From Candidimonas sp. (GTDB lineage: Bacteria; Pseudomonadota; Gammaproteobacteria; Burkholderiales; Burkholderiaceae_B): a stretch of DNA of 64,000 nucleotides. Both the position numbers and the translations under genes were made by a program. How positions within the stretch are numbered: position 1 is the stretch's first letter; the number at the start of each line of letters is the position of its first letter. Shown here piece after piece: positions 59,515 to 64,000 of this stretch. The notes beneath the pieces are model-generated. The model was not told the origin of the DNA. It saw only the letters and a list, made by a program, of their open reading frames with translations, and searched no databases. The stretch spans positions 1 to 64,000 of the forward strand of contig SCRC01000063.1 of NCBI GenBank assembly GCA_004297945.1, written 5' to 3'.

Positions 59515-60432
59515 TCATTTCGCCGACAAAGATTCGATTGGCTGGTAACAAGAGCAGGATACCGTTTCAAGGCCCGCACGGTCCAGGATTCTGATCGTGC
59601 CGCGGTGGCAACTGATCAGGTTGCGTGTCCGCAGGGAGCCGGCTGAAAATGTGACCGATTCGCGTCTCACGTTCATGACGGATGCCAGGTACTCCTGGGT
59701 CAGGAAGATTTCCTGCGACCGAGATCGATCGCTTGTCATCAGAAGCCAGCAGGCAAGTCGCTGCTCAAGGGGATGGGAGGCGAAGCACGCAGCGGCCTGT
59801 CGTGCTTGCGCCAGTTTCGTATTGGTAAAGCGATATAGCTCGCGTTGCAAGGGCAGGCATCGGCGAAACGCGTTGTTGAAGTGCGCAGCAGACATTCGCA
59901 AGGCGGTTCCGGCGGACTGCACCTCGGCACGAGCCGACGATACGTCGACGCCGAGTGCCAGCGATACGCCGATCACACCTTCGTAGCCGACCAGCCCGGT
60001 TTCCACGGTTCGTTGACCCGCGGTACCCGTCAACAGGCAGACAACGCAATCGACAGGAAAGTAGACGTGCCGAATCAGAGTACCCGCTTCGTGGAGAACG
60101 TCGCCGAACGCGAGCGTGACCGGTTCGAGGTCGGACAAGAGCCGCCGATAGTCCCTGCGAGGCAGGGCCGCGAGCACGGCGTTGGCTGCCGGCATCTCAA
60201 GCGCCACTTTCCGGCTTGCCGCGGATGCGCGGTTTGCGGCGACACGCAGCGCGCGGCGAGCTGCGGGAAACATGATGACGTTGGCGTTTCCGTAGTCAAT
60301 AACCGCGTCGACTTCGCCGGCCTCGACCGCCCGCTGTTCAGGTCCGCCTCTAGGAAGCCGGCGAAGTACGCTGCGCAGCCCGGCCGATCCCGGTCCGACA
60401 CGAATGGCGGCAAGATGGCCATCACTCGACAT
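59515..60432 (-). CDS. Crp/Fnr family regulator with an N-terminal extension of about 80 aa
   Basis: NAVLAALPRRDYRRLLSDLEPVTLAFGDVLHEAGTLIRHVYFPVDCVVCLL; C-terminal HTH TQEYLASVMNVRRESVTFSAGSLRTRNLI. Confidence 0.9.
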   Translation of the reverse strand: MSSDGHLAAIRVGPGSAGLRSVLRRLPRGGPEQRAVEAGEVDAVIDYGNANVIMFPAARRALRVAANRASAASRKVALEMPAANAVLAALPRRDYRRLLSDLEPVTLAFGDVLHEAGTLIRHVYFPVDCVVCLLTGTAGQRTVETGLVGYEGVIGVSLALGVDVSSARAEVQSAGTALRMSAAHFNNAFRRCLPLQRELYRFTNTKLAQARQAAACFASHPLEQRLACWLLMTSDRSRSQEIFLTQEYLASVMNVRRESVTFSAGSLRTRNLISCHRGTIRILDRAGLETVSCSCYQPIESLSAK

Positions 60433-60748
60433 TTGGCTTCAGCCCGAGTGCAAACAAGACACGAATCTTGTCGCTGAGGTTGCCGACGACCTGTGCCACC
60501 GGCCCTGGCGACAGCTTGGTAAGACTGGGGGTGACCACCACGCCATCGGCCATCGCCCGTCGCGGGTTCTCGAGGACATCGACGACCTCCAGCCTGTGAC
60601 CGTCCTTCAGGTATTCGGCGCAGATCGCCTCCAGGTTGGCGATCGCTTGTATCGAATTGGGCGCGCCGCCGGCGACGTACAGGCGCAGCACCACGACCTT
60701 CGACAACGCCGCGGGCGCTGCCATGGACTTGTCTGTTCGCCGGTTCAC
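60422..60748 (-). CDS. kaiB: KaiB family circadian clock-type protein
   Basis: VVLRLYVAGGAPNSIQAIANLEAICAEYLKDGHRLEVVDVLENPRRAMADGVVVTPSLTKLSPGPVAQVVGNLSD. Confidence 0.95.
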   Translation of the reverse strand: MNRRTDKSMAAPAALSKVVVLRLYVAGGAPNSIQAIANLEAICAEYLKDGHRLEVVDVLENPRRAMADGVVVTPSLTKLSPGPVAQVVGNLSDKIRVLFALGLKPNVE

Positions 60749-62598
60749 TTTGCGGCCCCGTTCGTGCTTTTCCGCGCGGACACCTGCACGGCGTCCGCAC
60801 CACGCCTGCTACGCATCTCGCTTTCGCGCTGACTCGAGGAGGCCGTGCGAACGTCGTATTCTCCAGAATATAGTGTCAGTTCGGCGCGCTGCCTCTCCAG
60901 CTCCAATTGCAAGGCCTTGATGTGGGCGCTCGTGCTCGCCTCGGCGAATTGAAGATCGCGGCGCTTGTGATCGAATTCAGCGCGATGCCGGACTTTCTTG
61001 GCGCTCTCTTCAGCTTCCTTCTCCCAGCGCAGCGTACCCATCAGCACTTCGCCCCCAGCTGTGTAGACATCGGATAGCGACGGGCCAGCCTCGCTCAAGA
61101 CGAGCTCGCGCACCTGGTTGGAGTGCGACGTACCCCGTGATTTGACGATTGTGAGCGCGCGGTTGCGTTCGCCGCTTCGAACCAGGTAGGATAGATGAAT
61201 CCATGTGTCCGCGATGGTCGAGATCTGCAGGTCAGTGGCTTCGTCTCCTGTCTCGCCGGATTCGCTCAGGGCGGTCACCATCAAGGTGATGTTCGCATCC
61301 TTGACCATGTAGATGAGCCGGTTCGCGACCGTGCGCGCAGCCCCCAGCGCGCCCGCTTTGGCAATGGCCGTCAGCGGGTCTATCACCATGCAACGCGGTT
61401 GGTAGTCGCGAATAAGCGCATTGATCTTGATCAATTGCTCTTCCGCGCTGATGCCTTCGGTGCGGGCCGAGTACATTCGCAACAGTCCGGATTTCAAGTG
61501 CAGGCCAAGCTGGATACCGACAGACGACAGGTTGCGCACGATCTGTTCCGCGCTTTCGTCGAAGCTTACGAACAGCGCTCGCTCGCTGCGCCGACAGGCC
61601 GCCTCGACGAACTTTCCGGCCAGCGTGGTCTTGGACGTGCCCGGCACGCCCGTGATCAGCGTACTGCTCCCGCGAAAGACGCCGCCGCCGAGCATCACGT
61701 CGAGCCTATCGAAGCCGGCGCTCAATCGCTCGGTCGACGCCTTGTGTCCGATTTCCGCAGGCGTGGCGGCGCCCACCTCGATACCCGATGCCCCGAAGCT
61801 CAAAGGGAACTCGGCCGCCGCGTAGCCCGACCCTCGATATTTCGTAATCTGGAGGGTCTGCACCGATATGCGGTCTTCGTGGCGTCGCTCGAATCGCACG
61901 ACGCAATCGACCATGAACTGCAGGAACCCGTAGTGCACGGCTTCGACGGGTCGCCCCTCTATCTTGGCCGTCATGATAGCGGTCAACGCGTTGTCGTCGA
62001 GCCAGTCGCGCAAGCGATAGAGCTCGCGCATTTCGGCGGCTGGGTCTTGAAGCAGGGTCAGCAAGACGTCGATGCCATCGAACACGATCCACTGCGCCCC
62101 GATCTCCTGCTTCTTGGCCACGAGCATGGCCAGCATGCCGGCCAGATCGAAGTCGCCGGCCTTGACCAAGGTGGGCGACAAATGGGCGTCCATGAAGAAC
62201 AGCTTCTTCGCCGACAGGTTTGCCAGGCCCCAATCGAACGTGGCACCATTGGCAATGATCTGGCGCGGACTTTCCTCGAAGGCGACAAATATCCCTGGCG
62301 CCCGATGGTGAAGCGCGGCATTGACCAGGCACTGCAGCGCGAACACGGTCTTTCCCGCGCCCGGGCCACCGATGAGCAAGCTCGTGCGGTGCTGCGGGAA
62401 GCCGCCGTGGCTCAGTTGATCGAATCCCACAATGCCGGTGGCCAGTTTGGCCAGCGGCATTGTGGGTGTCTTCTTGGGTCCGATTTTGGCCTCCGTTTTG
62501 GGGGAAACGCAGCCGGTTGCAACGTCTGACGCCACGAGCGCCGACGGCGTTTCTATTTGAACTTGTACAGTATTTTTTCGGGCTTGTATGTGCGGCAT
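60745..62598 (-). CDS. kaiC: KaiC family double-domain RecA-like ATPase
   Basis: 617 aa; CI P-loop GGPGAGKT and EES; CII GVPGTSKTT and DES; TDLQIST phosphosite-like segment; core likely starts at MPLAKLATGIVGFDQL. Confidence 0.94.
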   Translation of the reverse strand: MPHIQARKNTVQVQIETPSALVASDVATGCVSPKTEAKIGPKKTPTMPLAKLATGIVGFDQLSHGGFPQHRTSLLIGGPGAGKTVFALQCLVNAALHHRAPGIFVAFEESPRQIIANGATFDWGLANLSAKKLFFMDAHLSPTLVKAGDFDLAGMLAMLVAKKQEIGAQWIVFDGIDVLLTLLQDPAAEMRELYRLRDWLDDNALTAIMTAKIEGRPVEAVHYGFLQFMVDCVVRFERRHEDRISVQTLQITKYRGSGYAAAEFPLSFGASGIEVGAATPAEIGHKASTERLSAGFDRLDVMLGGGVFRGSSTLITGVPGTSKTTLAGKFVEAACRRSERALFVSFDESAEQIVRNLSSVGIQLGLHLKSGLLRMYSARTEGISAEEQLIKINALIRDYQPRCMVIDPLTAIAKAGALGAARTVANRLIYMVKDANITLMVTALSESGETGDEATDLQISTIADTWIHLSYLVRSGERNRALTIVKSRGTSHSNQVRELVLSEAGPSLSDVYTAGGEVLMGTLRWEKEAEESAKKVRHRAEFDHKRRDLQFAEASTSAHIKALQLELERQRAELTLYSGEYDVRTASSSQRESEMRSRRGADAVQVSARKSTNGAAK

Positions 62599-62660
62599 CG
62601 AACATAGCGTCTGGATCCGAAATCATGGCCGACCAAACCATTTGTGGGTCCTTTTGCCCA

Positions 62661-62789: not shown

Positions 62790-62898
62790 GGCCGATTACT
62801 GTAATAATAAACATCATTTTTAGCGTGAAATCGGAAAGCAAAGCCTGACATTCAAGGCTATGCCAAAAACCGACGCTAGTACGTCTGGCTGAGTCTAT

Positions 62899-62948
62899 TG
62901 GTGCCGGTTAGAAGAGTCGAACTCCTGACCTTCGCATTATAAATGCGC
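62899..62948 (-). tRNA. 3' fragment of a tRNA gene (anticodon arm, T arm, acceptor, CCA), probable att-site remnant
   Basis: Reverse complement GCGCATTTATAATGCGAAGGTCAGGAGTTCGACTCTTCTAACCGGCACCA; no matching 5' half (GCCGGTT...) next to it. Confidence 0.6.
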
Positions 62949-63073
62949 AAAATATAGGGTTTTTCCGTATTTATCCATGTTGATTAAAAATCGCAAAACA
63001 CTGTGAATATGCGGGTTCTAAGCGGGTACACAAATGTGAAGGTTGATTTGTATTGATTGATATCGTATGATTC

Positions 63074-63106
63074 GGGGTACACAGGGGGTACAAAGGGGGT
63101 ACACAG
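63074..63106 (+). repeat. Three tandem 11-bp repeats GGGGTACA(C/A)AG just upstream of the integrase
   Basis: GGGGTACACAG GGGGTACAAAG GGGGTACACAG; further GGGTACACA at 63024-63032. Confidence 0.85.
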
Positions 63107-63114
63107 GAATCGAC

Positions 63115-64000
63115 ATGGCAAGGGATAATCTCACACCGGGACGCATAGAAGCACTTATATGCCCGCCCAATAAAAAGCAGGTATTCCTACGTGATGCATC
63201 GGGTCTAGGCGTTCGTGCGACCGCTGGCAGCAAGTCCTATATTTTCCAGGGCAAGTTATCCGGGCAGGTTATCCGTATGACCATTGGCGGCCTGGAGACA
63301 TGGAGCCTAGGGGACGCTCGTAAAGAGGCCCGCCGCCTGAAAACCATCATTGATGATGGCCGCGACCCGCGCATAGACAAGGCCGAAGTCACCGCCGCCG
63401 ATACCGCTACACGTGCGAAGGCCGTATTAGACAAAGCCGCTGCCCTCGATGCTTGGAACGTATATATAAAGGCGCGTGCCGGTAAATGGAGCGCTCGCAC
63501 CTTCCTTGACCATCAAAAGCTATCCGACGCCGGGGGTAAGACGAAAACGCGGGGGCGCAAGAAAGGGGAAGGCGAAAAGACATTGCCGGGGCCGCTGGCT
63601 GGTCTGCTGGCGTTACCGCTGTCGAAAATTGACCGTGCCGCCGTCACTGACTGGTTAAGGCAGGAGCAGCGCCGCCCGACTGTGGCCCGTGGTGCTTTCG
63701 TTCGCTTGCGTGCTTTTCTGAACTGGTGCGCTGACCGCCCCCAATATAAGAATCAAGCCATACCCGCCGCTTGCAACACCCGTGTTATGCGTGCCGAACT
63801 ACCGAAAGCCCGCGCCCGCGATGATTGCTTGCAGCATGAGCAGTTAGCCGTATGGTTCGAACAGGTGCGCACGCTCCAAAACCCGGTTATTGCCGCCTAT
63901 CTGCAAGCCTTATTATTGACCGGCGCCCGCCGCAATGAATTGGCCGCGCTGAGATGGGAAGATGTTGATTTTCAATGGGGTAGTCTGACTATCCACGACA
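63115..64000 (+). CDS. Tyrosine recombinase/integrase with DUF4102-type N-terminus (3' truncated by window)
   Basis: MARDNLTPGRIEALICPPNKKQVFLRDASGLGVRATAGSKSYIFQGKL...LLLTGARRNELAALRWEDVDF; frame open to the window end. Confidence 0.93.
   Translation, partial: MARDNLTPGRIEALICPPNKKQVFLRDASGLGVRATAGSKSYIFQGKLSGQVIRMTIGGLETWSLGDARKEARRLKTIIDDGRDPRIDKAEVTAADTATRAKAVLDKAAALDAWNVYIKARAGKWSARTFLDHQKLSDAGGKTKTRGRKKGEGEKTLPGPLAGLLALPLSKIDRAAVTDWLRQEQRRPTVARGAFVRLRAFLNWCADRPQYKNQAIPAACNTRVMRAELPKARARDDCLQHEQLAVWFEQVRTLQNPVIAAYLQALLLTGARRNELAALRWEDVDFQWGSLTIHD

What the first reader, a model, noticed from the sequence alone, without database searches (positions are those of the whole stretch)
59515..62598. 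kaiC-kaiB-crp/fnr operon: KaiBC system wired to a Crp-type regulator, no kaiA
kaiC and kaiB overlap by 4 bp (ATGA at 60745-60748). kaiB and the crp/fnr gene overlap by 11 bp (60422-60432). This indicates one translationally coupled operon. Established: KaiBC without KaiA occurs in non-cyanobacterial bacteria, often with histidine kinases. Here the coupled output gene is a Crp/Fnr-type DNA-binding protein. This suggests a KaiBC timer or stress switch that acts directly on transcription, and it is my main candidate for an undescribed system.
Basis: partly seen in the sequence, partly recalled or inferred. Interest (0 to 1): 0.75.

Follow-up and report, generated by a model that had tools for sequence, protein, structure and literature searches.

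The report
Kai timer operon with Crp output
Three overlapping genes encode a KaiC/KaiB protein timer and a DNA-binding regulator that carries the same small N-terminal domain normally found on the signalling kinases beside KaiBC in related bacteria, so the timer probably acts directly on transcription instead of through a kinase.

Summary
In detail: kaiC, kaiB and a Crp-family gene lie on the minus strand with 4-bp and 11-bp overlaps. The order and both overlaps recur in two unrelated genomic contexts (L007, L008), and the three KaiCs form one fully supported clade. The nearest KaiBC operons (L161, L182) also hold a crp gene, upstream of kaiC.

Proteobacterial kaiC-kaiB operons usually end with a PAS kinase or GGDEF/EAL protein. 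I find that those third genes share an N-terminal module of about 50 residues (core 'GEVDAV'), absent from Pfam and NCBIfam and nearly exclusive to genes next to kaiB; Rhodobacter sphaeroides KaiBC has it too. The window's Crp carries this module, and its core is the best conserved part of the protein. The usual output has apparently been swapped for a DNA-binding domain.

A palindrome, TGTGCGGCATCGAACA, lies upstream of kaiC and matches the motif found upstream of this Crp subfamily. Autoregulation is likely, but I found no other intergenic strict site in the incomplete genome. The cassette is absent from a same-genus genome and sits beside a tRNA-Thr integration site. I call it a new variant of proteobacterial KaiBC systems. 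Timing and protein contacts are untested.

The parts
60745..62598 (-). kaiC, double-domain KaiC ORF of 617 aa; true start probably downstream of 62598, candidate M47 at 62458-62460
   Evidence: PF06745 two domains, NCBIfam KaiC above cut-off; aligned to R. sphaeroides KaiC 8dba over residues 47-574; N-terminal 46 residues not conserved
61216..61221 (-). codons of the S460-T461 phosphosite pair of KaiC, aligned with S413-S414 of R. sphaeroides KaiC
   Evidence: alignments; S and T identical in L007 and L008
60422..60748 (-). kaiB, 108 aa, GTG start, 4-bp overlap with kaiC
   Evidence: PF07689 above cut-off; PDB KaiB matches to 6e-20
59515..60432 (-). Crp-family regulator, 305 aa, 11-bp overlap with kaiB
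   Evidence: HTH_Crp_2 above cut-off; Crp/FNR fold in the predicted model
60244..60387 (-). N-terminal GEVDA module of the Crp (residues 16-63), shared with third-gene kinases and GGDEF/EAL proteins of KaiBC operons
59557..59766 (-). winged HTH of the Crp (residues 223-292)
   Evidence: PF13545 match at residues 224-289
62589..62604 (.). predicted Crp operator TGTGCGGCATCGAACA upstream of the conserved kaiC coding region

Best explanation
The three genes form one operon, probably autoregulated. It encodes a KaiA-less KaiC/KaiB ATP-driven phosphorylation switch (hourglass-type timer or metabolic switch) whose output is a transcription factor instead of a histidine kinase. KaiC, with conserved Walker motifs and an S/T phosphosite pair, would change state with ATP/ADP and KaiB would bind one state (inferred from R. 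sphaeroides). The N-terminal GEVDA module of the Crp, shared with the signalling proteins encoded in the same position elsewhere, couples the Crp to the KaiBC complex (inferred) and so changes DNA binding by the Crp domain (inferred). The Crp binds the palindrome in front of kaiC and regulates its own operon, closing a feedback loop on the timer (operator shown by sequence, binding inferred). Shown: genes, overlaps, conservation, module homology, operator motif. Inferred: protein contacts, sign of regulation, timing.
For: Order and both overlaps conserved in three unrelated contexts. Module homology: hhalign score 32.7 against at most 22.8 in 200 column shuffles; the three Crps and two PAS/GAF proteins rank above 2000 shuffles; tblastn 38% identity, E 1.3e-5, to the protein after kaiB in L161. 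The module follows kaiB in 16 of 16 genomes hit and at 11 of 13 hits in the class, and in R. sphaeroides KD131. Its core is the most conserved part of the Crp, 76% invariant against 44-58% in the body. Sister operons hold a crp upstream of kaiC. Operator motif in front of kaiC here and in front of crp-kaiCB in L161, enriched upstream of this Crp subfamily.
Against: No physical interaction, timing or DNA binding has been measured. Only three operons with the fused Crp were found. The module homology between Crp and kinases rests on about 45 residues. A wider regulon was not found in the window genome, so the output may be limited to the operon itself. The L007 operator is degenerate.
Confidence: 0.6

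Rival explanations
1. The Crp is only a local regulator of kaiBC expression that senses its own ligand or redox state. It is an input to the operon, not the output of KaiBC.
For: The only intergenic strict operator found in this genome is in front of kaiC. In L161 and L182 the crp gene without the module is first in the operon, with the operator before it in L161.
Against: The Crp carries the module that elsewhere sits on the presumed output proteins after kaiB, and that module is the best conserved part of the protein. A plain regulator would not need it.
Confidence: 0.22
2. The Crp gene is a chance passenger, co-transcribed with kaiBC without functional link.
For: Crp genes of this subfamily are common in the order: 23 of 101 relatives searched have one.
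Against: Same order and overlaps in three contexts, two Crp lineages in one KaiBC clade, and the shared module.
Confidence: 0.05
3. KaiBC here is not a timer but an ATP/ADP-dependent stress or metabolic switch, with the Crp as its output.
For: No kaiA nearby; KaiC has a C-terminal extension of the R. sphaeroides type, in which the ATP/ADP ratio drives the cycle. The first of the two catalytic Glu of CII is Asp (D347), which might alter the kinase.
Against: S460 and T461 are conserved. Sequence alone cannot separate timer from switch; this is a variant of the best explanation, and its confidence overlaps with it.
Confidence: 0.4

Closest known systems
Proteobacterial kaiC-kaiB-PAS/histidine kinase operon (Rhodobacter sphaeroides KD131, Rhodopseudomonas palustris; PMC10076222, PMC4794148)
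   Same: kaiC then kaiB then a signalling gene; KaiC with C-terminal extension and phosphosite pair; third protein begins with the GEVDA module.
   Different: Third protein is a Crp-family DNA-binding protein, not a kinase; KaiC only about 36% identical; gene overlaps.
kaiC-kaiB-GGDEF/EAL operons of Beta- and Gammaproteobacteria (KaiC contexts in PMC3164672)
   Same: Nearest relatives after L161/L182; KaiC 46-52% identical; same module at the start of the third protein.
   Different: Output is c-di-GMP or kinase signalling instead of DNA binding.
Crp/Fnr family (GlxR, M. tuberculosis CRP, FNR, NtcA)
   Same: cNMP-binding-like fold, long helix and Crp HTH; best PDB structural matches are GlxR and M. 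tuberculosis CRP.
   Different: cNMP domain below the Pfam cut-off; extra N-terminal module; predicted operator TGTnCGnnnnCGnACA instead of the E. coli CRP site (the latter from general knowledge).
Cyanobacterial KaiABC-SasA-RpaA
   Same: KaiC and KaiB homologues; a DNA-binding output acting on the kai promoter is the inferred analogy.
   Different: No KaiA in the neighbourhood, no SasA-type kinase in the operon; DNA-binding output encoded in the operon itself.

Membership tests
Bacterial KaiBC timer proteins | Double-domain KaiC with two P-loops | tested here: met
   PF06745 two stretches, NCBIfam PRK09302 480 vs cut-off 408; TIGR02655 (circ_KaiC) is below its cut-off, 288 vs 546
Bacterial KaiBC timer proteins | Adjacent phosphorylatable residues in CII | tested here: met
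   S460-T461, aligned with S413-S414 of R. sphaeroides KaiC
Bacterial KaiBC timer proteins | KaiB encoded next to KaiC | tested here: met
   PF07689 71.7 bits vs 27; below the NCBIfam equivalog cut-off (77.5 vs 110)
Bacterial KaiBC timer proteins | Rhythmic or hourglass phosphorylation | not testable with these tools
   needs biochemistry
kaiC-kaiB-histidine kinase operon | Third gene encodes a histidine kinase or GGDEF/EAL protein | tested here: not met
   third gene has only Crp domains in Pfam
kaiC-kaiB-histidine kinase operon | Third protein begins with the GEVDA module (feature defined in this work) | tested here: met
Crp/Fnr family | cNMP-binding-like domain followed by Crp HTH | tested here: met
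   HTH_Crp_2 above cut-off; cNMP_binding 21.3 vs 27.5, below cut-off; fold by predicted model
Crp/Fnr family | Known effector (cAMP, Fe-S cluster, heme, 2-oxoglutarate) | tested here: inconclusive
   by eye the segment EGVIGVSLALGVDVSSARAEV lacks the usual Glu of the cAMP phosphate cassette; Cys129, 216, 293, 295 conserved in the subfamily, meaning unknown

The most novel reading that the evidence does not exclude
The GEVDA module is the general output-coupling domain of proteobacterial KaiBC timers. In this operon it sits on a DNA-binding protein, giving a complete protein clock plus transcriptional feedback loop in three overlapping, horizontally transferable genes.
Probability: 0.35. Interest if true: 0.85.

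Novelty: new variant of a known kind. Interest (0 to 1): 0.63.

Why it matters
How KaiBC without KaiA passes its state to the cell outside cyanobacteria is an open question. This work points to a small unnamed module shared by different third-gene outputs, including the structurally studied R. sphaeroides operon, and to a case where it is joined to a transcription factor. If the module binds KaiB or KaiC, the output route becomes directly testable, and the three genes would be a compact portable timer with a built-in transcriptional readout and a known candidate operator.

Tried and rejected
Passenger hypothesis: disfavoured by conservation in three contexts. Plasmid relatives of the Crp module: none in PLSDB; plasmid KaiCs are only 31-38% identical. 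Wider regulon in the window genome: the strict pattern gives 5 sites, 4 of them inside ORFs; GTnCGnTAnCGnAC gives 0 sites against 11 for its control, so no regulon is claimed. Descent of the module-bearing Crp from the upstream Crp of L161: rejected, they fall in different parts of the Crp tree. Promoter for kaiC: none convincing. A hairpin over M47 of KaiC in the window (-35.8 kcal/mol, z -7.7) is not seen in L007 or L008. Literature: no paper found that links KaiBC with a Crp-family output; the library is open-access only. In one search the L161 row of the KaiC alignment is in the wrong frame and was ignored.

Full report
OBSERVATION. The minus strand of 59515-62598 carries kaiC (60745-62598), kaiB (60422-60748) and a Crp-family gene (59515-60432), overlapping by 4 and 11 bp exactly as reported. 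Domain libraries and PDB sequence matches support each identity. The best KaiC match in the PDB is the R. sphaeroides KaiC, and the alignment runs into its C-terminal extension. The phosphosite pair is conserved as S460-T461. The Crp model (mean pLDDT 80) has the Crp/FNR fold preceded by a small helix-helix-hairpin-helix module of lower confidence. The genome holds one KaiB and one double-domain KaiC; other PF06745 matches, on contigs C90 and C117, are weaker.

CONSERVATION. A scan of genome contigs with the Crp found two loci with the whole operon: L007 (a gammaproteobacterial MAG) and L008 (Ideonella sp. A 288). Both have the same gene order, the same 4-bp and 11-bp overlaps and unrelated flanks. 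KaiB relatives are rare: 3 of 271 genomes of the family, 17 of 400 of the order, 18 of 369 of the class. In the KaiC tree the window, L007 and L008 form a clade (100/100) whose sister is L161+L182 (joint clade 100/100); next come operons with PAS, GGDEF/EAL or kinase third genes.

WHAT NORMALLY SITS IN THIRD PLACE. [quoted passage not shown] R. palustris and R. sphaeroides, PMC4794148). In most fetched relatives this is so. Most of these proteins start with the same ~50-residue module, L..L..AEETLxAIrsGEVDAlVv, then a short stretch ending in LxxAxxxxR. Representative modules match no family in Pfam or NCBIfam above cut-off. A profile of it (A6) hit 16 of 20 genomes, exactly once each, each time just downstream of kaiB, including one genome (G646) not used to build it. 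In 369 class genomes, 11 of 13 hits lie just after kaiB; the other two are marginal. The third proteins of R. sphaeroides KD131 and Pararhizobium, also not used, match at 6e-18 and 9e-25. Not every kaiB-linked third gene has it: some operons, mostly with more distant KaiC, lack it.

THE CRP CARRIES THAT MODULE. Most other Crps of the subfamily align only from about residue 78-86 of the window protein; the first 80 residues belong to the Kai-linked ones. Residues 16-62 match the start of the PAS/GAF protein after kaiB in L161 (38% identity, tblastn E 1.3e-5). Profile comparison with the kinase modules gives a score of 32.7 against at most 22.8 in 200 column shuffles and 12.6 elsewhere in the same Crp; in an hmmsearch the three Crps and two PAS/GAF proteins rank above 2000 shuffled sequences. 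Residues 35-63 are 76% invariant among the three Crps, against 20% in the linker and 44-58% in the Crp body. The simplest reading is an exchange of the output domain behind a common KaiBC-coupling module.

A SECOND CRP LINK. In L161 and L182, the closest KaiBC operons, a crp gene without the module lies directly upstream of kaiC (4-bp overlap in L182), and the module sits on a PAS/GAF protein without kinase domain. The L161 Crp and the window Crp are distant in the Crp tree, so Crp regulators joined this KaiBC clade twice, or one replaced the other.

OPERATOR. Upstream of the conserved kaiC coding region in the window lies TGTGCGGCATCGAACA (62589-62604); upstream of crp-kaiCB in L161 lies TGTTCGGTATCGTACA. 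The pattern TGTnCGnnnnCGnACA occurs 40 times in 1.24 Mb of fetched loci (a few are overlapping copies of the window site) against 0-6 for nine control palindromes. In the Crp loci, 11 of 22 hits fall in the 22.6 kb upstream of Crp genes, out of 390 kb. In G739 the sites lie mostly in intergenic DNA next to further crp genes and to genes whose products look, by eye, like polysaccharide export and synthesis, acyltransferase and NRPS proteins. It is therefore probably the binding motif of this Crp subfamily. In the window, L007 and L008 the same block, with an invariant CACATACA half, aligns before the conserved KaiC coding region. In the window genome the other four strict sites lie inside ORFs, so autoregulation is the only predicted direct effect; the assembly is 83% complete and the motif may have drifted.

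ORIGIN. In a same-genus genome (G001) the AsmA gene lies directly next to tRNA-Thr. The window genome has 5.9 kb in between: the kai-crp cassette, then a 59-bp copy of part of the tRNA, an integrase and an XRE-type gene, then the intact tRNA. The cassette has higher GC (61.7%) than the window (57.2%). Horizontal acquisition is likely; the cassette lies outside the repeat pair, so it is not shown to move with this integrase.

MECHANISM. By analogy with the R. sphaeroides hourglass, in which the ATP/ADP ratio sets KaiC phosphorylation (PMC10076222), the KaiBC state would be read by the GEVDA module and passed to the Crp DNA-binding domain, which acts on its own promoter. Every step beyond the presence of the parts is inference. 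Whether KaiBC here is a timer or a metabolic switch cannot be decided from sequence.

NOVELTY. KaiBC operons with a third signalling gene are known. I found no report of a Crp output, of the shared module as a domain, or of the operator, within an open-access library. Hence: new variant of a known kind.

Noticed in passing
window 62890-62948 and 63067-64000 (contig C54 on to 65449; locus L203): Integrase (63067-64431) and an XRE-type gene (64694-65083) lie between a 59-bp partial tRNA-Thr copy and the intact tRNA-Thr (C54 65374-65449): a small integrated element next to the kai-crp cassette; both are absent from same-genus genome G001.
   Followed up: partly
L207-L210 (G739, 1.81-1.90 Mb): TGTnCGnnnnCGnACA sites cluster around the kai operon of G739, mostly in intergenic DNA beside crp genes and genes that look like exopolysaccharide, NRPS and acyltransferase functions: a possible Crp regulon of polysaccharide synthesis.
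   Followed up: partly
N-termini of third-gene proteins in L105-L123, L161-L179, L212, L213: An unnamed ~50-residue GEVDA module marks signalling proteins encoded after kaiB; not in Pfam or NCBIfam.
   Followed up: yes
window 62426-62466: A 41-bp inverted repeat spans the candidate kaiC start M47; as RNA it folds at -35.8 kcal/mol (z -7.7); not seen in L007 or L008.
   Followed up: partly
window KaiC residue D347 (codon 61558-61560): The first of the two catalytic Glu of the CII domain is Asp in this clade; L106 has Asp-Ser.
   Followed up: no
window crp, residues C129, C216, C293, C295: Four cysteines nearly invariant across this Crp subfamily, possibly redox or metal related.
   Followed up: no
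L161 295-3400: A second KaiC-like gene (497 aa) and a hybrid histidine kinase lie downstream of the kai operon in G739.
   Followed up: no
L010 6-638: Closest Crp outside the three operons; the contig begins inside the gene, so it may belong to a further kaiBC-Crp operon.
   Followed up: no
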